Shown piece by piece: positions 46,693 to 64,000 of a stretch of 64,000 nt of DNA. Position numbers and translations under genes: made by a program. The notes under the pieces were generated by a model. The model was not told the origin of the DNA. It searched no databases and saw only the letters and a program-made list of their open reading frames with translations. Numbering within the stretch: position 1 is the first letter of the stretch; each line of letters starts with the position of its first letter. The stretch comes from Termitomyces sp. T153 (taxonomy: Eukaryota; Basidiomycota; Agaricomycetes; Agaricales; Lyophyllaceae), in contig JACKQL020000103.1 in NCBI GenBank assembly GCA_018296165.2, positions 103,158-167,157 on the forward strand, read 5' to 3'.

Positions 46693-48513
46693 ATGACTTC
46701 GACCTCGAGGTTATCGTCCAGGCCCCCCCCCGGCGGTCCCAGCCCAGGTGGGACCCCAGATCGCTCGCGCCTCCTTCCGACCCATTCCGACCTGAAGACC
46801 CTGATGGCTGTCGATAGTGGTCCGATCAAATCGGCGCAGGATGCCCGCAAGTGGCTTGAATTGAGAAGCTGGATACTAGCTGCGGACCCGTATGACCGCA
46901 CCAAACTCGTGAACATCCTCGCGACCGCCGCACTCACATCCAAACTCCCGGAGCTCAGGAATGCGGCACTGGCAGTAGCATTCCTTCTGGATGCTGATAT
47001 CACGGATTGCGTCTCGGACACCCTGGCCGACGCAGTGGCGGCAAAGGCCCTCGGTCGTATCGAGGGTCTAGTAGAGAAACTCGGCTCCACAGCCGATTTC
47101 CTCACTGCTAATGATGCCAAACGCGCCGAGTCGACCCTCGCGCTCAAGGCTACATCCGAGACGCTTGAGGGGGTATCCTCCTCGCTGGGCGCTTTGGCGT
47201 CCAAACTTGCGAGCCCCCCTCCCACCTCCATTGATGCCTCCGCCCTGTCCTGGGCATCAATAGCCAAAACCGCCCCCAAGACCACCGCCCCTGCACCCAT
47301 CACCCGCAACGCGCCTACGAACAATCTATCACCTGAAGACGTGTCCCGCATTCAGCAACAATCTCTCCGGGATGCATGAACAGTCCTCATTCGATTTGAC
47401 CCCCTCAACACCAACGCACCCACCGACTTCACAGCCTCGGGATCCTCAAAACTCCAGGACAGCCTCAACAAGATCCTAAAATGACTGGACGAGAATGCCA
47501 CCACTATCTGTCAAACCGAGGACGGGGAAATCGACGTGACCACCCCACGCACTCACGCAATAGGACTGAAGTCACTAGGCGGCAGTGCGTACCTCGCCGA
47601 ATTTGACACAGCTGACTCTGCTTCCAGATTCCGTCAGTACATGACTACCGAATGGATCCTTTTCACAGCCATCTTTGGGGATGGGGTAAGTATAGTTGAC
47701 AAGGCCTTCAACCTCATCGCACGCTTCGTCCCGTGCGAGGGATCCTTCAACCCTGACGACGTCAACTGCCTCCGCACGATCGAACTCGAGAACGGCCTGA
47801 AGTCCAACACCATCTCTTCGGCACTGTGGCTCAAACGTCCGGATCTACAATCCCTGAAGCAATTGGTTGCCTCTCTCAAGATCATATGCAACAACGCCGT
47901 GACAGCCAACGCCTTGATCGAGAAACAAATCTTCATCGGGGGCCGTCAAGTCCCTATTCGAAAGGACGTCCGCGAGCCCATACGATGCGGCAACTGCCAC
48001 AAATACGGCCACATCCGCAAAGAATGCAAAGAGGACGGCTGCTGCGCTAACTGCACCGACAAGGACCACTCAGCAAGCACGTGTAAAGCAGTGAAATATA
48101 GGTGTGTATCGTGCGGTCCAGATTCTGCCCATATGAGCACGGACCGCAGCTGCCCTGAATTCCTGCGTCGCTGCGCCGAGCTGGATTCTAGGTTCCCAGA
48201 AAACCGCATGCCATACTTCCCGACGGACAACCCTCTGACGTGGATAACGGCCCTGCCTAAGCAAGCTCCCAAGCCAGCCTCCGAGCTCACTCGCCCCCTC
48301 GCAACGCCCCTGCCATTCCCTATATCGCAGTCCCTGTCGCAACCTCCTCCACCATGGACTGAGCCTACCCGACCTCAGCCCCCGACGCAACGAACCCAGG
48401 CCAGCTCCAGGGCTCCAAGCCACATGGGCAACCTTGACGACTTCGGTTTCACATCCCAGCAGGGGGGCCCGAAGAACAGCGGAGGTGAAGTCTCTTCCTC
48501 CCCGTTGAATTAA
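46693..48513 (+). pseudogene. LINE ORF1 (RNA-binding, three zinc knuckles), two TGA stops
   Basis: A 606-codon frame open except for two TGA codons, at 47,377-47,379 and 47,491-47,493; no frameshift is needed. The N-terminus is Ser/Pro/Gly-rich and the middle helical. Residues about 430-495 hold CX2CX4HX4C (CGNCHKYGHIRKEC), CANCTDKDHSASTC and CVSCGPDSAHMSTDRSC, typical nucleic-acid-binding knuckles of ORF1 proteins that form the RNP with the element RNA. The C-terminus is Pro/Thr-rich. The old copy has Lys-like codons at the matching places, so both stops are mutations of this copy. The stop codon TAA (48,511-48,513) overlaps the ORF2 start. Confidence 0.85.
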
Positions 48514-48515
48514 TG
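48511..48515 (+). promoter_or_regulatory. TAATG stop-start overlap between ORF1 and ORF2
   Basis: The A of the ORF1 stop TAA is the A of the ORF2 ATG. The same UAAUG arrangement is used for termination-reinitiation in some insect LINEs (SART1). Here the mechanism is inferred from sequence only. Confidence 0.7.
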
Positions 48516-51500
48516 AACTGCCGTCCATCCAGAGCACCCGGCAAACTACGCATCTGGCAGCAAAACACTCGCAAGTCCGACACCGCGCAAGCGGAGGTTC
48601 TGGCTGCGGCCCGCCCTGAGGACTGGGATGTGCTCGCCATTCAGGAGCCATTCCTTGACCATGTGGGCAACACGAAAGCAAACAGACACTGGAGAGTCCT
48701 CTACCCCTCAGATCACCGACGGGATGGAAGCTCTCGTACGTGGTCTATACTCCTAATCAACGCTAACATCTCCACAGACACATATACCCAGCTGACCATT
48801 CACTCCACAGACATCACAGCTGTCCAATTCGCTGGCGAATTTGGACACCTATCTCTCTTCAACGTGTACAACGACTGCACCCACAACGAGGTGTTATTCT
48901 CTCTTTCTTCCTTTCTGTCCTCCTCCCTTCATCTTGCCCGCCCCTCTCCAGGGGATCATATGGTATGGCTGGGCGACTTCAACCGCCACCACCCACTCTG
49001 GGAGCCTGTTGATAATCGCCACCTCCTCACCCCTCGAGACTTCATCCAGCCTCTCCTTGACCTCCTGTCTGATTATGACATGGAGTTGGCACTGCCGCCA
49101 GGTATACCCACACTGCAGACTTCTGCCAACCGATGGACTCGTCCAGACAATGTCTGGAGAACACATTCGGATGTGGATCCTATTATTTTCTGTGACGTAG
49201 ATGCCTCTCTCCGTCCCTCCCTTGCTGACCACCTCCCGATCATCACCGAGATAGAACTGCCAGTACCTCGGTCCTCCGCACCTCCCTCAAGGGACTTTAG
49301 GGCCGTGGACTGGACAGCCTTCAGCGAAGCTCTGACGGAGCAGCTGAACTCTCGCTCCCCCGCCGTACACCTAACCACAGCTGAGGCCTTTGACCGAAAA
49401 GTCTCTGACCTCTCTTCCATCATCCAGGAGATTGTGGCCAGAGATGACGTTGTCCCTCTCCGGAAACCCTGCCCACACACCAAACGGTGGTGGAATGATG
49501 ACCTCAAATGGCTCAAGGCCCAGAGGCGCAGGGCCTGCAACCAGGCTTTCAAGCATCGCAACGTCCCCGATCACCCGTCCATTGCTGAAGCCTCCCGCCT
49601 CGCACGCGAGATGGACTCCACAATCCGTCTGGCCAAAGAGACACATTGGAGGGAATGGCTGGAGAACATTTACGCGCGCCAGATTTACCTGGCGAACAAA
49701 TACGTCGTCAACGAGCCAACCGACTTTGCTCGCGACAGGGTCCCAGATCTCAAGGTCGAGGTCAACGGCGCCCAGCTCACAGCATCCACCAATGGAGAGA
49801 AGGCCGATGCTCTAGCTGAGTCTTTCTTTCCTCCTCCTCCCGCTTCTCCCTCCATACCCCACACTGCCTATCCCTTGCCGCTCCCAGACTCCCCCTTCTT
49901 CACCCGGGACCGCATAGCTGCCGCTATTGGGGGACTACCACCGCTCAAGGCGGCTGACCCAGACGGTATTCCAAACATTGTTCTTAAGCGCTGCGCCGAG
50001 ACTCTCCTCGACCACTTTTACTTCATTTTCAGAGCAGTCTTTGAACTGGACGTCTACCATTCCAGCTGGCTGGAATTGACGACTCTCGTCCTGCGCAAAC
50101 CAGGGAAACCCGCCTACAATGTTGCGAAGGCATACCGACCCATTGGTCTTCTCAATACCATTGGAAAACTCTTGTCCACCTTGGTTGCTGCTGACCTTTC
50201 GCACTTAGCAGAAAAACATGGCATGTTCCCTCCTGGGCAGTTCGGCGGCCGACCAGGACGCAACACGTCTGACGCCATGCATCTGGTGGTCTCAAGGATC
50301 AAGGATGCATGGCAAACAGGTAAAGTAGCGACTGCCCTCTTCCTTGACGTCCAAGGGGCTTTCCCCAACACAGTCACGAGCCGCCTCTTGCACAACATGA
50401 AGGAACGCAGTGTTCCCTCTGCCTATGTCTGCCTGGCGGAGCATATGCTCTCCAACAGACGCACTTGTTTGACGTTTGACGACTTCACGTCGGACTGGAT
50501 CGACATCACCAACGGCACCACTCAAGGCTGCCCCTTGTCGATGATCTATTACGCCTTTTACAATGCCCCCCTCATAGGGACTGCATTGATCGTGAATAAG
50601 TCAGAACTCATGTCTGGCTTCGTCGACGATGTGATGTTTCTAGCGGTAGCCAAGTCTCTGATGGAGACCCACACTATCATTGCTGACATGATGGAACGCG
50701 CCAGAGGCGGGTTCGACTGGTCCATCCAACACCACTCCCCCTTTGAACTAACCAAACTAGCTCTTATGAATTTTCCTCGCTCCCACCATGACCCCCCCCC
50801 CACTGACCTGACGCTCCGCCGTACGAATGCTGACGGCTCAATCACCACGCAGACAGTCGACACTGTCCAGACTTACAAATACCTCGGGGTGGTCTTTGAC
50901 CCCAAACTACGTTGGTCAGCACATATCCAGAGAGTGACGGCGAGCGCCGTATGGTGGACAAACCAAGTGTCTAGACTCTCCAGAGTCTCTGGAGGCATGC
51001 CCCCTCACCGCGTCCAGCAGCTTTACAACACGGTCGCGGTGCCGGCCTTTACATATGCCGCAGATGTTTGGTACACTGGTGTCTCTGATGGCACAGGTGG
51101 TCAGCGGAAAACAGGCTCGGTGGCGGCCACTCGGAAGCTCTCATCAGCCCAACGGAAGGCTGCCAAGACCATCACAGGTGCCCTCAGCACCACGGCAGGT
51201 GATGTAACCGAAGTGCATGCAAACCTGTTACCTGTTGACCTTCTTTTCCAAAAAGTACTGACAAGGGCGGCCGTCTGCCTTGCATCGCTACCTCCCTCCC
51301 ACCCCCTGTTTAAACCAGTCAGAACAGCTGCACGACAATACGTCAAGCGACACTGCTCACCATTACACAACTTATTCCACTTCACAGGCATCAACCCGTC
51401 AACTATGGAGACCATCGAACCCACACGACGACACCCCAGCTACCGACCAGCCTTCAGCTTCCACATCCCCCCATCAAAGGAGACCGCCCTGATGGCCATC

Positions 51501-52502
51501 CAGAGGGCCCATGACAAGTCAAGGACCTTGGTCTACTGCGACGGGTCGGGCTTCGAAGGGGGGATTGGAGCCTCGGCTGTCCTGTACATAGATGGCGAGG
51601 AGGTTACCTCTCTGAGGTATCACCTCGGCTCTGCTGCAGAGCACACGGTCTATGAAGGGGAGGCGGTTGGGTTCACACTTGGCCTACACCTACTCTCAAC
51701 ACTCAACCGGCAACTACGAGGCCCCACGATCATGGGGAGTGACAGTCAAGCGGTCATCAAGGCCCTCAAGAACCAGCAACCTCACCCCGCACACCACCTG
51801 CTCGACAAGGCCCACTCTGCAGCCGAAGCCCTACACAGGAAGCAAGGCCGTCTCATCCACATGACCCAACGTCGTGCCGTGCAAGGCACGGGCAGAGAAA
51901 AGGACTTGCGTTCCCGGGGCGTCATCAAGCTGCAGGTCCACTGGGCACCTGGACACCTTGACTTCAGTCCGAACGAACGCGCAGACGAACTCGCCAAGGA
52001 TGCGGCCATGGGCTCCTCAAGCCCCCCACATGACCTTCCAGTATACCTCCGCACCAAACCCTTACCAACCAGCACCACCACCGTCCGCCAAGCCGACCTC
52101 GTCGCCTCACAAGTCATATGGAAGAGGAGATGGAAAAAGTCAATGCGATCCCCGTTCATCCGACTCCTCGACTGTACCCTCCCCTCTAGAAGTTACCTCC
52201 GTCTCGTCTCCGACCTCGATCGACGCCGCTCCACCCTCCTCACCCAGCTGCGTATGGGCCACCTCCCGCTCAACCACCACTTATTCCGCATCAGGAGATC
52301 AGAGTCCCCAACCTGCCCGTACTGTCAGGGCATAACAGTCGAGACGGTCGCACACTTCCTGTTCCAGTGCCCGCAGTACAAACATGAGTGGCACATACAT
52401 TTGGTCCGCCCACTGAAACGTAAAGCTGAGTCTATTTCCCTGCTGCTCTCATCCCCGGCTGCTCTCAAACACCTATTCAGATTCGCGGAAGCTACCAAGT
52501 GA
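48513..52502 (+). CDS. LINE ORF2: endonuclease-RT-RNase H, intact 1,329 aa
   Basis: Drives target-primed reverse transcription. N-terminal APE-type endonuclease (residues 1-245): WQQNTRKS, QEPF with the catalytic Glu, GDFNRHHPLW at about 152-161, and ADHLPI at about 237-242 where most relatives have SDH. RT (about 470-800): FLDVQGAFPN at about 609, TQGCPLSMI, and catalytic FVDD at 703-706. RNase H (about 1,005-1,160): YCDGSG, the YEGEA Glu, GSDSQA, and PGHLDFSPNERADELAKDA, so the acidic residues are present. A zinc-like CPYC...HFLFQC segment is at about 1,270-1,290. No stop or frameshift. The start ATG lies in a TAATG stop-start overlap with ORF1, suggesting reinitiation. Confidence 0.93.
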   Translation: MNCRPSRAPGKLRIWQQNTRKSDTAQAEVLAAARPEDWDVLAIQEPFLDHVGNTKANRHWRVLYPSDHRRDGSSRTWSILLINANISTDTYTQLTIHSTDITAVQFAGEFGHLSLFNVYNDCTHNEVLFSLSSFLSSSLHLARPSPGDHMVWLGDFNRHHPLWEPVDNRHLLTPRDFIQPLLDLLSDYDMELALPPGIPTLQTSANRWTRPDNVWRTHSDVDPIIFCDVDASLRPSLADHLPIITEIELPVPRSSAPPSRDFRAVDWTAFSEALTEQLNSRSPAVHLTTAEAFDRKVSDLSSIIQEIVARDDVVPLRKPCPHTKRWWNDDLKWLKAQRRRACNQAFKHRNVPDHPSIAEASRLAREMDSTIRLAKETHWREWLENIYARQIYLANKYVVNEPTDFARDRVPDLKVEVNGAQLTASTNGEKADALAESFFPPPPASPSIPHTAYPLPLPDSPFFTRDRIAAAIGGLPPLKAADPDGIPNIVLKRCAETLLDHFYFIFRAVFELDVYHSSWLELTTLVLRKPGKPAYNVAKAYRPIGLLNTIGKLLSTLVAADLSHLAEKHGMFPPGQFGGRPGRNTSDAMHLVVSRIKDAWQTGKVATALFLDVQGAFPNTVTSRLLHNMKERSVPSAYVCLAEHMLSNRRTCLTFDDFTSDWIDITNGTTQGCPLSMIYYAFYNAPLIGTALIVNKSELMSGFVDDVMFLAVAKSLMETHTIIADMMERARGGFDWSIQHHSPFELTKLALMNFPRSHHDPPPTDLTLRRTNADGSITTQTVDTVQTYKYLGVVFDPKLRWSAHIQRVTASAVWWTNQVSRLSRVSGGMPPHRVQQLYNTVAVPAFTYAADVWYTGVSDGTGGQRKTGSVAATRKLSSAQRKAAKTITGALSTTAGDVTEVHANLLPVDLLFQKVLTRAAVCLASLPPSHPLFKPVRTAARQYVKRHCSPLHNLFHFTGINPSTMETIEPTRRHPSYRPAFSFHIPPSKETALMAIQRAHDKSRTLVYCDGSGFEGGIGASAVLYIDGEEVTSLRYHLGSAAEHTVYEGEAVGFTLGLHLLSTLNRQLRGPTIMGSDSQAVIKALKNQQPHPAHHLLDKAHSAAEALHRKQGRLIHMTQRRAVQGTGREKDLRSRGVIKLQVHWAPGHLDFSPNERADELAKDAAMGSSSPPHDLPVYLRTKPLPTSTTTVRQADLVASQVIWKRRWKKSMRSPFIRLLDCTLPSRSYLRLVSDLDRRRSTLLTQLRMGHLPLNHHLFRIRRSESPTCPYCQGITVETVAHFLFQCPQYKHEWHIHLVRPLKRKAESISLLLSSPAALKHLFRFAEATK

Positions 52503-55402: not shown

Positions 55403-56661
55403 ATGGAGAGTAAAGCTGAAGAAGGACTGCGGTTGCTCGCTCTTGGTACGAGATCCCCGAGTCGGCAGCCATTGACTGGGACCTCTGACTTTAAGATTGA
55501 AACTGATTTTGCACTCATGTCAGATGGCGGTGGAATTCGTGGGCTATCTGAGCTTCTCATACTTGAGGAGATCATGTACAGGATTAAAGCTGAGGAAGGG
55601 TTGGAAGAAGTACCTAAGCCTTGCGAATATTTTGATATCATCGGAGGCACGAGTACTGGAGGGTACGTCACGTCTTCTTCTACCTACCAAGGACTTCTCA
55701 TAACTGAAATGTGTTTTTCCTGCGAGAAAATAGCCTGATTGCGATCCTACTGGGTCGATTATGTATGTCGGTCGAAGAGGCGATCAGCGTGTACAACGAG
55801 TTCGCGGGAAAAGTATTCTCGGAAAGGAAGTATTGCTGGCAGGATGGGACATTTAAAGCGAGTACTCTCGAGGTTGCGGTGAAGGATATCGTCGCGCGGT
55901 TCGACGAGAGCGGGGACGATAATATGATGAGTGATATGTCTAAGCGGAGTGCATGCAAGACGTGAGTCCGAGTTTCTCCCCACAAATCTTTACGCGAATT
56001 CTATCCAAACTCCTCTAGCTTCGTCTGCGCAATGTCCGCACAGAACATGGCCCACCCGCGCCTCTTCCGCTCGTACGAAGTCCGTTCACATCCAGAGTAC
56101 AATGCCAAAATCTGGGAAGTAGCCCGTGCAAGCTCCGCCGCGCCTACGTTCTTCAAACGTATCAAAGTTGGCGCCGACCCCAAGGAAGAATTTGTTGACG
56201 GCGGGTTGATGTGCAACAACCCTACCGCCGAAGTACTTAAGGAAGCACAAAATACCTATGGGATGGATCACCCTATAGCGTGCATCGTGAGCATTGGCTC
56301 GGGGCATCCCAGAACGATCACATTGCGCAAGCCGGATGGGTTCCAGAGGTTACTTCCGACGAATTTGATCAAAGTACTTGTGGCTATTGCGACAAATTGT
56401 GAGAAGGAATCGGAGAACTTTGAGAGGACGCATGGGGAGGGAAATAAAAATAGGTCTCGGGGAGAAGCGAAAAAGTATTTTAGATTCAATGTGCAGCAGG
56501 GATTGCAGGATGTTAGTCTCGCGGAATGGACGAAGATGGGTGAGGTGAAAGCACATACGTTGCAGTATTTGAGAGGTGCAGCAGTCGATGTGGAGATTGA
56601 TAGAGTTAGGGACGTGTTGAGGGCCAGGAGGACTCGGATGTTGGTGGAGTCGTTGACATGA
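55403..56661 (+). CDS. Patatin-like phospholipase, catalytic dyad intact
   Basis: Predicted 350-aa acyl hydrolase of the patatin family (cleaves fatty acids from membrane phospholipids). Exons: 55,403-55,445, 55,524-55,662, 55,734-55,961, 56,019-56,661; all introns GT-AG, 57-78 bp. The first intron is chosen because it joins LLAL to DGGGIRG, the family's oxyanion-hole motif (residues 15-21). Nucleophile elbow GTSTG with Ser58, and the DGG motif with Asp197 (FVDGGLMCNNP), complete the Ser-Asp dyad. No signal peptide or membrane segment is seen, so it is probably cytosolic. No kinase follows; the gene ends with its own stop. It is the upstream member of a tandem duplication; the downstream copy has lost the serine. 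Confidence 0.88.
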
Positions 56662-57714: not shown

Positions 57715-60598
57715 ATGGCTGAAGGACTGAGGCTGCTCGCTCTTGGTACGTGATATAACTCCGAGTCGGCAGCCATCCGTTGACCTGACTTTATGATTGA
57801 AGATGGCGGTGGCATCCGTGGGATATCCGAGCTTCTCATACTTGAGGAAATCATGAATAGGATCAAAGCTGAGAATGGGCTAAAGGAGGCCCCCAAGCCT
57901 TGTGAGTATTTTGATGTAATTGGGGGTACGGGTACTGGAGGGTACGTCATGTCTTCTACCTACCAGGGTTGAATCTATCATAACTGGCATGTGTTCTTTC
58001 ACCGCAAAATACTCACATAGCTTGATTGCGATCCTACTGGGACGACTATGTCTATCTGTCGAAGAGTCGATCGGGGCGTACACCGAGTTTGCTGGGAAAG
58101 TCTTTTCAGAGACGAAACACAAGTGGCAAGACGGGACGTTTAAAGCTAGTACATTCGAAACTGTGATTAAGGCTGTAGTCGCGCGGTACGACGATAGTAA
58201 GAGCGAGAATGCGCCTATGATGAGTGACGTATCCGCACAACGAAACTGCAAAACGTAAGTAAGTCCCTTCGATCACCCAAAAAAACATCCTCAATGTATC
58301 CAGCTTCGTCTGTGCCACGCCTGGACCCTCTCAACTCACAACCGACACACGCCCGCACCTCTTCCGCTCCTACCCCGCCCAATCCCCCTCTGAATCCCTC
58401 AACTCTACCATCTGGGAAGCAGCCCGCGCTACCACCGCTTCTCCCCCTTTCTTCAAACGCATCGAGATCGGCACATCGTCCCCCAAGGAAGAATACATCG
58501 ACGGCGGGCGGGGATGCACCAACCCCGCCTTCGAAGTCCTCAAAGAAGCACAGAGTATCTATGGGATGGATCACCCTGTTTTGTGTGTTGTGAGCGTGGG
58601 CGCAGGACATCTGGGGACGGTGGGAGTTGGGGCGGGTAGGTCTGATGCGTTTCGGGTGGAGGTGGTGAGGGCGCTTGAAGGGATTTCGATGGATTGTGAG
58701 AGGGTTGCGGAGGACTTTTCGAGGGTGTATGGGCACGGGAATAAAAACAACAATCAAAATGTGGGGGAATCAAAAACGTATTTCAGGTTTAGCGTGCAGC
58801 AGGGGTTTCAGGATGTTAGTCTTGCGGAGTGGACGAAGATGGGAGATGTGAAGACGCATACAATGCAGTATCTGAGAGGGGTGGTTGTTGATGCGGAGAT
58901 TGACAGGGTTAGGGATTTGTTGAAGTCGGCGGGTCCGGACGAGTACCGTGGACGTCTTCAAATTGAAGGTCAGGGCGTTGGCTTGAATGAAATAAGCTCG
59001 ACCTCGGTGTGTAATCACCTAAAATATGTGTATATCACTTTTTATGACTTGGGAATGATCTGGTACAGGTGCTAGAGCAAACTCTACTGAAACAAGTAAA
59101 AGTGACGTCCTCGCTTTGTGTTATATTCGACACGGTCGCGCATTATAAATGTCTTCTCTCTTGCGATGAAGCAGACGCTCAAAAAATCCTCGACGCATTC
59201 CAAACGGTAAATGACTACCCTTACTACTTACTACCAAAGACAAGAGTGTAACTCAACCAATCCAATAATGAAGCTTCTAGATACCGAAACTTTCCAAAAT
59301 CGAGCCCAGCTGGTCGTTGCGATGCACCGACTCTCAAGTCGCACAAACCTCTACCCTACCCAATTTTTCTTAAAAGGGTCTCTGCCTCCTCTCGGAGATG
59401 AACCAGTGGCAGCGGGAAGTTTTGCCGATGTCTATAGGGTAATGTTTCGAGGTGAAGATATGTGTTTCAAGGCGATTAGATTGTATCAGCGATCGCAGGT
59501 TGAGCATATGGCCAAGGTCTGTCTGTCTGTCACCATCTTTAATTGGTGTAATGTAGAACTTATTTCTTGATTTTTTTCTTTGATTTCTAGGTATACGCGA
59601 GGGAAGCTATACTTTGGGCACAGCTATCCCATCCGAATATTCTTCCGTTTTATGGACTTTTACAAGTTGGTTCAAGGTTGGCTTTTGTATCGCGGTGGGC
59701 TACGAACGGGAATCTTGAGGATTATTTGACGAGTGAGAACCCAGATGCGAATAACCGATTACTTCTAGTAAGGTAATGCAAATATTAGCTTGAACGCGTC
59801 TTGATTTCCCTTTCTCCAGTGTTTGGATACCGCAGCTGGGGTGGAATATCTGCATACAAATGATGTCGTTCACGGAGACTTGAAAGGGGTGAGTGAGACC
59901 CGTACTTCACATGTCGATTGGTACCGTTTCCAATAACACCAAGGTGAACGTCCTCGTTGATAGTTCCGGTCGCGCTGCACTAGGAGACTTGGGTCTCGCC
60001 AGCGTGACAGACCCGCAGATTCTTAAATGGACTACACAGTCGAGTGTGGCGTCGAAAGGGGGAACTGTACGTTGGCAGGCTCCCGAGTTGTTGGACTCTG
60101 AGGATAGGTCTGAGAAAATTCATAATACGAAAGCGAGCGATGTGTTTGCGTGGGGTAGTGTTTGTTATGAGGTGGGTTTCCTGGGAGCATTCCATTTCAA
60201 GTCTCATTTGGATTGGATAATAGATATTCACGGGGAGTGTTCCGTATCATCAGCATCGGAACCAGACGACTGTTATGCTGAGTATACAGAGGGGAGATAT
60301 GCCGCAGCGTCCGGAGGATAGTGATCCCGCGTGGATTAGACATGGGTTGACTGATAATGTCTGGAACCTCATGAGGGATTGTTGGGCATTTGATCCATCT
60401 AAGCGTCCGGATATGACTAGGGTGATTTCGAGACTTGAGGTTGAGAAGATGGTGGATTTTCGATTGCGAGGAGAGTGGGAGGATAAAGTGGGTATGTGGT
60501 TTAGGAATGCGCAGGATGGGTCTGAGGGGGCGATGGATTTGTTTTGGGAGGAGTTGGACCTGTTAATTAAGCGTGTTGTACCGGTGGATGAAGAATGA
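57715..60598 (+). CDS. Pseudo-patatin fused to a tyrosine-kinase-like kinase
   Basis: Predicted 778 aa, ten exons: 57,715-57,745, 57,803-57,941, 58,021-58,254, 58,304-59,006, 59,069-59,206, 59,274-59,516, 59,591-59,767, 59,820-59,888, 59,944-60,171, 60,224-60,598; all introns GT-AG, 49-79 bp, frame kept throughout. Residues 1-365: patatin domain, DGGGIRG at 11-17 and DGG with Asp201, but the elbow reads GTGTG, so the nucleophile is Gly54. Residues about 460-730: kinase with AAGSFADVY loop, Lys481, HGDLKGVN (573-580), GDLG with Asp593, WQAPELL and a normal C-lobe, so probably active. The exon 59,069-59,206 has no in-frame ATG and encodes the N-terminal flank typical of these kinases, so it needs an upstream exon. 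Alternative: intron 59,007-59,068 is retained and the patatin stops at 59,077; a separate kinase could start at 59,268. Confidence 0.75.
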
Positions 60599-62884: not shown

Positions 62885-63000
62885 GCAGAACAAGTCTCTA
62901 GATTTGGTCTGAGATCCCTCTTTTTGATTGCCTGAGTTTTTACTTGGTCCTCAAAAAGTCTCTCCCCCACCAGTGTCTTAGTGCTCCCTGTGCTCCTCCT

Positions 63001-64000
63001 ATGACCCAGCCAACCTCTTCAGCACCTCCCCCTGATGCTTCAAGCCCCCAGGATGATGCCTGGAGTTGTTTGCTGTCTATAGAGACACAACCTCAACTTA
63101 CTCAAGCCTCCCTTACCTCCCACACTGCCAAACTCACTGGGCTCCATCAAACTACTGAAGCAGTGTCCCTTTCTCTCCAGGCCCTCCTGGAACATCTCCC
63201 CCTTGCTCCTACTCCCCCTCCTGGACCCCCTGCAGCTGCAGCAAGGTTTTCTTCTGCACCTAACTCAGAGGTTTCAGCACCCTGCTCCAAACTTCCTCAC
63301 CCTGCCCTCTCTAATGTCTTTGATGGGAACTGTAGAGTTGGGGAACATTTCCTCCAGTCCTGTATCACCTATATCCAGCTGAGTGGTGAAGCCTTTGCCT
63401 CTGATGCTTTGAAAATTGCTTGGGTTCTCTCCTACTTAAAGGCCAGCCAAGCTTCAACCTATGTGCTGCATATCTTTCAACACCCAGGAGGAGTTGAGAG
63501 TTTCTCTGGCTGGATGGAGTTTGAGAAGGAGTTTCAAGCTGAGTTCTTTCCCCTTGACCCTACCAAAACTGCAGCTCTTTCCCTTCAAGACCTCATCGAG
63601 TATGATCAAGGGAAGCTGTTACTCAATGAGTACATTGACTCTTTTCATGCCTTAGTTGAACAGGCTAGATATCTGGATGGTCTGCAACTTTGCCTAACCT
63701 TCAGTGATGGACTTCACCCCTCTCTTATGGATTGCATCAACAGTATGGCAGAGGGACACCCAGATGATGAGCATGTCAATACCTGGTATAAGGTGGCATG
63801 TGAGCAGTGGCAGCTCATGGAACTGCAATGTGAGTTGCAGTGGACACAATCTTCAACCTTTCCTTTCTCTCATGGAGGGTTCACCTCCCAAGCTCCCCCT
63901 TCCACACCTGCACTAGCATCCTCACAAGCAGGTGCAGCTCCTTCCTTCACACCTCACATGGCTCCCTTGCACTCCCTACCCCAAGGAGTCCCAATGGATG
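63001..64000 (+). CDS. Chromovirus D Gag, open, cut by the window end
   Basis: ATG at 63,001 (the first after an in-frame TAG at 62,899) opens 333 codons with no stop before the window ends. Pro/Ser-rich N-terminus with a QLTQASLTSHTAKLTGL coil, then the Gag capsid domain (FLQSCITYIQLSGEAFASDA, GGVESFSGWMEFEKEFQAEF, LLLNEYIDSFHALVEQARY, AEGHPDDEHVNTWYKVA). It ends just before where the zinc knuckle should come. It is far better preserved than copies A and B, though just as CpG-poor (one CG seen, near 63,598). Confidence 0.85.
   Translation, partial: MTQPTSSAPPPDASSPQDDAWSCLLSIETQPQLTQASLTSHTAKLTGLHQTTEAVSLSLQALLEHLPLAPTPPPGPPAAAARFSSAPNSEVSAPCSKLPHPALSNVFDGNCRVGEHFLQSCITYIQLSGEAFASDALKIAWVLSYLKASQASTYVLHIFQHPGGVESFSGWMEFEKEFQAEFFPLDPTKTAALSLQDLIEYDQGKLLLNEYIDSFHALVEQARYLDGLQLCLTFSDGLHPSLMDCINSMAEGHPDDEHVNTWYKVACEQWQLMELQCELQWTQSSTFPFSHGGFTSQAPPSTPALASSQAGAAPSFTPHMAPLHSLPQGVPMD

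What the first reader, a model, noticed from the sequence alone, without database searches (positions are those of the whole stretch)
57715..60598. Catalytically dead patatin fused to a complete protein kinase
Seen: the patatin half keeps DGGGIRG and DGG but the nucleophile elbow is GTGTG, not GTSTG (AGT to GGT), and ten exons stay in frame from the patatin ATG to the kinase stop. The first kinase-side exon (59,069-59,206) has no in-frame ATG, so it needs an upstream exon. Known: patatins need the elbow serine; fungal STAND/NLR-type immune proteins can carry patatin domains; plants use inactive integrated decoys. Inferred: a lipid- or effector-sensing pseudo-patatin coupled to kinase output, with the active patatin next door as the guarded or signalling partner. 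I know of no described system with this layout.
Basis: partly seen in the sequence, partly recalled or inferred. Interest (0 to 1): 0.88.

Follow-up and report, generated by a model that had tools for sequence, protein, structure and literature searches.

The report
Dead lipase joined to protein kinase
A gene in a termite-farmed mushroom joins a lipase-like domain that has lost its catalytic serine to a complete protein kinase; the joint protein recurs in several Termitomyces genomes, and the same serine has been lost many times in related mushroom proteins.

Summary
Window 57,715-60,598 splices into ten in-frame exons encoding 778 aa: a patatin domain with elbow G-T-Gly-T-G, then a RAF/RIPK-like (TKL) kinase with its catalytic Lys, Glu and Asp residues. 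It is unlikely to be a read-through or a base error. Seven database proteins, all from Termitomyces, carry the same join (60-98% identity for the six longer ones); six of the seven have the same Gly, and one (T159_Od127) keeps Ser. A second copy in this genome (C43) conserves the join and its intron and has lost two more active-site residues. Both halves are under purifying selection.

The interpretation needs changing. Loss of the elbow Ser is not special to the fusion. Of 19 related patatin loci read in this genome, 14 have Gly, 2 Asn, 2 Ser and 1 is unreadable, and about 19 changes fall on a tree of 247 proteins. The patatin is of the fungal NLR (PLP-1-like) type, but there is no NB-ARC, so this is not an NLR. 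The neighbouring Ser-bearing patatin is a close relative in tandem; the C43 copy has no such neighbour, so a guard pair is unsupported. Most likely it is a receptor-like kinase with a pseudo-patatin input domain.

The parts
57715..57745 (+). exon 1 of patatin-kinase gene (PK1), start codon 57715
57803..57941 (+). exon 2: oxyanion loop DGGGIRG and nucleophile elbow GTGTG
57931..57933 (+). elbow codon GGT (Gly54) in place of AGT (Ser)
   Evidence: AGT in neighbour; Gly in P0001-P0005 and P0242
58021..58254 (+). exon 3, patatin
58304..59006 (+). exon 4: patatin DGG (Asp201), C-terminal part and linker to the kinase
59007..59068 (+). intron 4 between patatin and kinase parts, 62 nt, GTGTGT..TACAG; 46 nt in the C43 copy with the same ends
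59069..59206 (+). exon 5: N-terminal helical region of the kinase part, no in-frame ATG
59274..59516 (+). exon 6: helical region, Gly-loop (degenerate), beta-3 Lys481
59591..59767 (+). exon 7: alpha-C Glu501
59820..59888 (+). exon 8: HGDLKG catalytic loop
59944..60171 (+). exon 9: catalytic-loop Asn, DLG Asp593, APE
60224..60598 (+). exon 10: kinase C-lobe, stop codon at 60598
55403..56661 (+). neighbouring stand-alone patatin P1 (exons 55403-55445, 55524-55662, 55734-55961, 56019-56661), 350 aa, elbow GTSTG and DGG intact

Best explanation
A single gene of a Termitomyces mushroom encodes a two-domain signalling protein: a pseudo-patatin (fold kept, nucleophile Ser replaced by Gly) followed by a short linker and a TKL protein kinase with its own helical N-terminal region. 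Shown: the gene model, its conservation in the genus, the loss of the nucleophile, intact kinase motifs, and purifying selection on both halves. Inferred: the patatin part no longer cuts lipid. It instead binds a lipid, nucleotide or protein partner, or self-associates, and so gates or localises the kinase, which carries the output. The patatin was probably taken from the patatin-NLR family, a member of which triggers cell death in Neurospora, so the most likely setting is self/non-self or stress signalling; this last step is the least certain.
For: Frame and motifs. Six longer Termitomyces homologues plus the Mn162 fragment P0242 carry both domains. The C43 copy has the same ten-exon plan, the same phase-0 join and an 800-aa product; intron 4 differs by 16 nt while linker residues on both sides are shared in frame. 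Of 69 alternative first-exon combinations (ATGs from 58,800 on), 58 start at patatin-frame ATGs 58,839 or 58,863, among them all 4 with a GT[AG]NG donor; the 11 others have weaker donors. NG86 dN/dS between the two copies: patatin 0.39 (bootstrap 0.26-0.56), kinase domain 0.26 (0.17-0.36). The kinase parts of PK1, the C43 copy and P0001-P0006 lie in one 11-member Termitomyces clade, support 0.994; one clade of fused patatin parts is not rejected, p-AU 0.26. AlphaFold model of the orthologue P0001: mean pLDDT 83.9, pTM 0.56; first Foldseek match RIPK1 kinase.
Against: No transcript or protein data. Inside the kinase clade, unfused proteins are nested: P0006 groups with P0007 and P0008 (0.996) and P0005 with P0040, none of which three carries a patatin (and, for P0008, the Pfam column). 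One fusion then needs later losses of the patatin or cut gene models (P0007 and P0008 lie on contigs of 5.6 and 6.8 kb); otherwise there were several fusions. T159_Od127 keeps Ser and Asp, so loss of catalysis is not a constant of the fusion. The C43 copy has lost more active-site residues, which also fits slow decay of the patatin part. Several database models skip or cut exons (P0002, P0004, P0005, P0006, P0242). The donor filter used on alternative first exons would also reject 2 of this gene's own 9 donors, so a weak-donor start cannot be excluded by it.
Confidence: 0.5

Rival explanations
1. Two adjacent genes, a decaying patatin and a kinase, wrongly joined by splicing prediction.
For: The patatin frame reads on to a stop at 59,075 if intron 4 is kept. 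An ATG at 59,268 could start a kinase-domain-only protein. Eleven weak-donor first exons outside the patatin frame exist. In-frame joining alone has about a one in three chance.
Against: The join is found across Termitomyces and in the C43 copy. The 59,268 ATG is absent in the C43 copy, and the intron-4 read-through differs there in length and frame. No first exon with a GT[AG]NG donor lies outside the patatin frame in the stretch searched. Only about 160 bases, intron included, separate the last patatin-like and the first kinase-like residues, little room for a terminator and a promoter.
Confidence: 0.08
2. The patatin half is a decaying passenger: the kinase is the functional part, and the dead patatin remains only because it is joined to it.
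For: Loss of Ser, and in the C43 copy also of the catalytic Asp and one oxyanion-loop Gly. dN/dS is higher in the patatin than in the kinase part (0.39 against 0.26). Close unfused kinases exist. Ser loss is common in this family.
Against: The patatin interval (0.26-0.56) lies well under 1 and overlaps the kinase interval. Much of the patatin part is modelled with high confidence. The join persists down to 60% protein identity. Losses are mostly to Gly.
Confidence: 0.2
3. Integrated decoy or guard: the pseudo-patatin is bait for an effector or virus that attacks patatin-NLRs, and the neighbouring active patatin P1 is the guarded enzyme.
For: Patatin is an N-terminal effector domain of fungal NLRs, and integrated kinase domains in Sordariales NLRs have been read as putative decoys (passages of PMC4986451, PMC12258605). 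P1 lies 1.05 kb upstream with intact GTSTG.
Against: No NB-ARC or repeats found in PK1. The C43 copy has no such neighbour. P1's near-copy on C38 has Asn at the elbow and no kinase in the 8 kb read. Ser loss is family-wide and so needs no decoy reason.
Confidence: 0.12
4. The patatin domain still works as an enzyme with another nucleophile, or as a different kind of acyl-handling enzyme.
For: The oxyanion loop and Asp201 are kept in PK1. The Gly elbow recurs in many otherwise intact proteins.
Against: Patatins are serine hydrolases with a Ser-Asp dyad (recalled), and cell death by the Neurospora patatin-NLR PLP-1 depends on patatin activity (passage of PMC12881547). The C43 copy has lost Asp as well.
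Confidence: 0.08

Closest known systems
Fungal patatin-NLRs (Neurospora PLP-1 type; patatin-NB-ARC-TPR)
   Same: Patatin half is 35-46% identical to the patatin of many proteins listed with NB-ARC.
   Different: No NB-ARC or repeats found; a TKL kinase follows the patatin instead; elbow Ser lost.
Agaricomycete TKL kinases (expansion noted in Laccaria, PMC2838846; the related FslK lineage, PMC3937382; passages seen)
   Same: Kinase part with HGDLK loop (HG in 96 of 97 motif matches), RAF-like by sequence and RIPK1-like by fold.
   Different: Carries an N-terminal pseudo-patatin. I did not test whether it belongs to FslK.
Bacterial CBASS phospholipases (CapV and relatives)
   Same: Closest solved patatins by sequence, E 7e-11 to 4e-9.
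   Different: Those are described as nucleotide-activated phospholipases; PK1 lacks Ser and is fused to a kinase.
Plant tandem kinases and NLRs with integrated domains (recalled; titles seen)
   Same: Idea of a dead enzyme domain joined to a signalling module.
   Different: Different kingdom and domains; no recognition data here.

Membership tests
Patatin-like serine phospholipase (active) | Patatin fold and sequence profile | tested here: met
   PF01734, 61.5 bits against cut-off 27.7
Patatin-like serine phospholipase (active) | Ser at the G-x-S-x-G elbow | tested here: not met
   Gly54, codon 57931-57933; also Gly in P0001-P0005 and P0242
Patatin-like serine phospholipase (active) | Asp of the DGG/DGA motif | tested here: met
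   Asp201 in PK1; Asn in the C43 copy
Patatin-like serine phospholipase (active) | lipid hydrolysis | not testable with these tools
   needs an assay
Fungal patatin-NLR (PLP-1-like) | NB-ARC or NACHT domain | tested here: not met
   only patatin and kinase profiles found at E up to 0.001
Fungal patatin-NLR (PLP-1-like) | patatin of the NLR-type family | tested here: met
   patatin-NB-ARC proteins at 35-46% identity
TKL protein kinase | kinase profile; beta-3 Lys, alpha-C Glu, HxDLKxxN, DxG, APE | tested here: met
   139.3 bits; Lys481, Glu501, HGDLKGVN, Asp593 (DLG), APE; RAF best by sequence
TKL protein kinase | phosphotransfer | not testable with these tools
   needs an assay
Integrated decoy immune receptor | binds a pathogen factor through the dead domain and triggers a response | not testable with these tools
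   no interaction data; no NB domain found

The most novel reading that the evidence does not exclude
Mushroom-forming fungi have repeatedly turned the death-dealing patatin domain of their NLR-type immune proteins into a non-catalytic switch by one change, elbow Ser to Gly; in Termitomyces such a switch was wired to a kinase, giving a ligand- or membrane-gated receptor kinase without any NLR core.
Probability: 0.3. Interest if true: 0.82.

Novelty: new variant of a known kind. Interest (0 to 1): 0.58.

Why it matters
I found no description of a patatin-kinase protein in my nine keyword searches. The genus offers a natural experiment: one fused protein with intact Ser and Asp (T159_Od127), others without Ser, and some (the C43 copy and its orthologues P0003 and P0004) that have also lost Asp. 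The wider pattern, about 19 separate changes of one catalytic serine and mostly to Gly, suggests a class of pseudo-patatins in mushroom immune-type proteins that can be tested directly. The passages I saw on fungal NLR patatin domains describe them as lipases linked to cell death; proteins with a Gly elbow could hardly act that way.

Tried and rejected
Exon 7 was first ended at 59,772 and then 59,768, which broke the frame; 59,767 with donor GTAAGG is right. Idea that the Gly is a sequencing error: rejected, since the orthologous proteins of other strains carry it. Idea that the fusion is unique to this genome: rejected. Idea that P1 and C38 are followed by remnants of the kinase: nothing beyond chance matches (best E 1.3 and 1.6). 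Idea that the Sphagnurus patatin P0121 ends in a kinase: no; it ends in a second patatin start. Whether P1 lost a kinase or never had one: unresolved. Whether the ancestral elbow of the fused group was Ser or Gly, and whether there was one fusion or more: unresolved. A CapV-like nucleotide pocket was not tested; identity is too low to align the pocket with confidence. One paper search for CapV structures gave nothing that I used. Two Termitomyces paper searches listed papers off the point. A dN/dS value for P1 against C38 came from a wrongly joined C38 sequence and is discarded. Foldseek on the whole model lists only kinases in the 50 rows shown, so the patatin half was not checked by fold. 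A note of mine says 13 GVGTG loci; the recount is 12.

Full report
What is there. The window lies at G000:C103:103158-167157 of a 72.4-Mb assembly in 307 contigs. The closest protein of the first search, at 98%, is H2248_001987 of Termitomyces sp. 'cryptogamus'; the Mn162 fragment P0242 groups even closer with the window, so the source is a Termitomyces mushroom or something very near it. All introns are GT-AG, and the product is 778 aa. Pfam finds Patatin at 8-210 and a protein kinase at 458-725, both well over cut-off.

The elbow. Residue 54, codon 57,931-57,933, is GGT (Gly). The oxyanion loop DGGGIRG and Asp201 are kept, and NNP has become TNP. The neighbour P1 (55,403-56,661, 350 aa) has GTSTG and DGG.

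Is the fusion real? First, homologues. Of 309 proteins found with the full query, 120 are listed; six of these (P0001-P0006) carry both domains, and all six are from Termitomyces. A second search scored on the patatin part lists 120 of 295, and again only those six carry a kinase profile. A third search, with P1, lists 120 of 6595 and added P0242 from Mn162, a 401-aa fragment with both parts, its kinase piece just over the cut-off (23.3 against 23.1 bits). The unlisted rest was not seen, and only proteins of 0.55 to 1.75 times the query length are candidates, so restriction to Termitomyces is not proven. Several of these models skip or cut exons: P0005 lacks the catalytic loop and P0006 the end of the C-lobe. 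Second, a copy in this genome. On C43 a gene with the same ten-exon plan, one intron having a GC donor, encodes 800 aa. Its intron 4 is 46 nt against 62 nt here, with the same ends, while linker residues on both sides are shared; so the intron looks non-coding and the linker coding. Third, starts. A list of alternative first exons for exon 5, with ATGs from 58,800 on, gave 69 combinations: 58 begin at patatin-frame ATGs 58,839 or 58,863, among them the four with a GT[AG]NG donor; 11 begin elsewhere with weaker donors and encode 1 to 9 residues. Two of this gene's own nine donors would fail that filter, so this argument is supporting, not decisive. The ATG at 59,268 that could start a kinase-only product is absent from the C43 copy. 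I have no transcript data.

History. In a tree of 122 kinase parts (123 found, one dropped for coverage), those of PK1, the C43 copy and P0001-P0006 fall in one clade of 11, support 0.994. The three others in it (P0007, P0008, P0040) are Termitomyces kinases without a patatin match, and they are nested: P0006 with P0007 and P0008 (0.996), P0005 with P0040. One fusion then requires later losses of patatin or cut gene models; P0007 and P0008 come from contigs of 5.6 and 6.8 kb. In a careful tree of 23 patatin parts that I chose from those held, the fused rows need two changes, and holding the seven together costs 0.54 log units and is not rejected (p-AU 0.26). One fusion within or before Termitomyces is the simplest reading, not a proven one. 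P1 and its near-copy C38 (orthologue P0232 in strain T112) fall beside the fused group with weak support, so whether they lost a kinase is open.

Selection. NG86 dN/dS between PK1 and the C43 copy is 0.39 for the patatin (338 codons, bootstrap 0.26-0.56), 0.28 for the helical region (77 codons, 0.14-0.64), 0.26 for the kinase domain (324 codons, 0.17-0.36) and 0.33 overall. Both copies have the Gly elbow, so the simplest reading is that purifying selection on the patatin continued after the Ser was lost. The C43 copy nevertheless shows Asp to Asn and DGGG to DNGG. T159_Od127 (P0006) has GTSTG and DSG, so its dyad residues are intact.

The loss of Ser is much wider than the fusion. In this genome I could read the elbow at 19 related loci: Gly at 14 (PK1, the C43 copy and 12 with GVGTG), Asn at 2 (C38, C43:96k), Ser at 2 (P1, C45), and 1 unreadable (C41:299k). 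Five further loci (C4:123k, C4:140k, C4:840k, C12:559k, C41:405k), a more distant patatin on C7 and a partial match at C2:96k were not read. The GVGTG loci look like patatin-NLR genes: a match to P0188 residues 369-509 lies beside 10 of the 12 and an NB-ARC profile match beside an eleventh, C4:674k. P0188's own NB-ARC match, 22.1 bits, is just under the curated 23.5. Among database proteins, of 121 with an alignable patatin out of 231 held at that point, 98 have Ser, 22 Gly and 1 Asn. Of 114 further ones, 102 have Ser, 6 Gly, 3 Asn, 1 Asp and 2 are not covered. On a FastTree tree of 247 patatins (250 anchored, 3 dropped; 201 Ser, 40 Gly, 5 Asn, 1 Asp; elbow column masked), parsimony needs 19 changes, 20 if Ser cannot be regained, and 20 or 22 after collapsing weak branches, against a mean of 42.9 (least 38) for 200 shuffles. 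Equal-cost parsimony does not tell gain from loss. Of the 20 pure non-Ser groups, 15 are Gly, 3 Asn, 1 Asp and 1 mixed; some rest on weak branches. If both transitions from AGY were equally likely, 15 or more of 18 has a probability of 0.004 by hand arithmetic. Gly thus seems favoured, perhaps because it fits the strained elbow (recalled). Codons other than those of PK1, P1, C38 and the C43 copy were not checked. By the names listed, the Gly and Asp cases are mostly basidiomycetes; P0278 and the Asn case P0157 bear ascomycete names, and P0167, P0180 and P0260 bear none (classes recalled).

The kinase. Lys481, Glu501, HGDLKGVN and Asp593 (as DLG; DFG in the C43 copy) are present. The HG form of the catalytic loop is the family rule here, 96 of 97 motif matches. 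By profile the nearest solved kinases are B-RAF, RAF and plant CTR1, among the best 60 of 1813; by fold, RIPK1 first and BRAF third of the 50 shown. The AlphaFold model is of P0001 (98% identical), with an alignment of 51 proteins chosen from those held; mean pLDDT 83.9 and pTM 0.56: two mostly confident domains, relative placement unsure. Relatives of this kinase carry other N-terminal parts by the listed Pfam accessions: NPHP3_N (NACHT-like), and, by accession names recalled, ENTH, PB1/CBS, BTB and SH3; there are also tandem kinases. The family is therefore modular, and patatin is one of its input parts.

The patatin. It is related to patatin-NB-ARC proteins at 35-46% identity; its closest solved relatives by sequence are CBASS phospholipases such as CapV. 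In Neurospora PLP-1, cell death depends on patatin activity (passage of PMC12881547). A Gly elbow should not support that chemistry; this is inference from known patatin chemistry, not shown here.

Mechanism, with likelihood. Most likely (about 0.5) the pseudo-patatin is an input or localisation module for the kinase; which ligand is unknown. The passenger reading (0.2) is the strongest rival. The guard-pair reading is weak: on C43 the only other patatin match is about 184 kb from the fusion and has Asn.

Known or new. I saw no patatin-kinase protein described in the listings of nine keyword searches, each capped at 8 to 20 papers. I read passages, not whole papers, of PMC10197012, PMC4986451, PMC9815663, PMC12881547, PMC12258605, PMC3937382 and PMC2838846. 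PMC4986451 and PMC9815663 list kinase and patatin separately as NLR N-terminal domains; the join without an NLR core was not in the passages seen.

Noticed in passing
own genome: C2:68-71k, C2:85-88k, C12:480-484k, C12:513-516k, C12:594-597k, C12:911-915k, C12:869k, C24:309-312k, C56:102-106k, C56:150-154k, C108:49-52k, C4:673-676k: Twelve patatin loci with DDGG and GVGTG in place of DGGG and GxSxG, most beside an NB-ARC-like stretch: patatin-NLR genes whose patatin looks catalytically dead.
   Followed up: partly
L070 (C38:315500-323500) and P0232 of strain T112: A near-copy of the neighbour P1 with Asn (AAT) at the elbow, shared by another strain, so hardly a sequencing error.
   Followed up: partly
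L073 (C77) and L076 (C54:311k), P0007, P0012: Tandem kinase proteins of the same family, with two or more kinase domains in a row, some looking degenerate; they recall plant tandem kinases.
   Followed up: no
P0081, P0083 and P0115: NACHT-like domain (PF24883) joined to the same kinase family in Blastosporella and Tephrocybe.
   Followed up: no
window 48489-52502: Long open frame of 1337 aa with endonuclease, reverse transcriptase and weak RNase H matches: a non-LTR retroelement near the patatin pair.
   Followed up: no
window 62902-63999: Open frame with a weak retrotransposon gag match, under the cut-off, running off the window.
   Followed up: no
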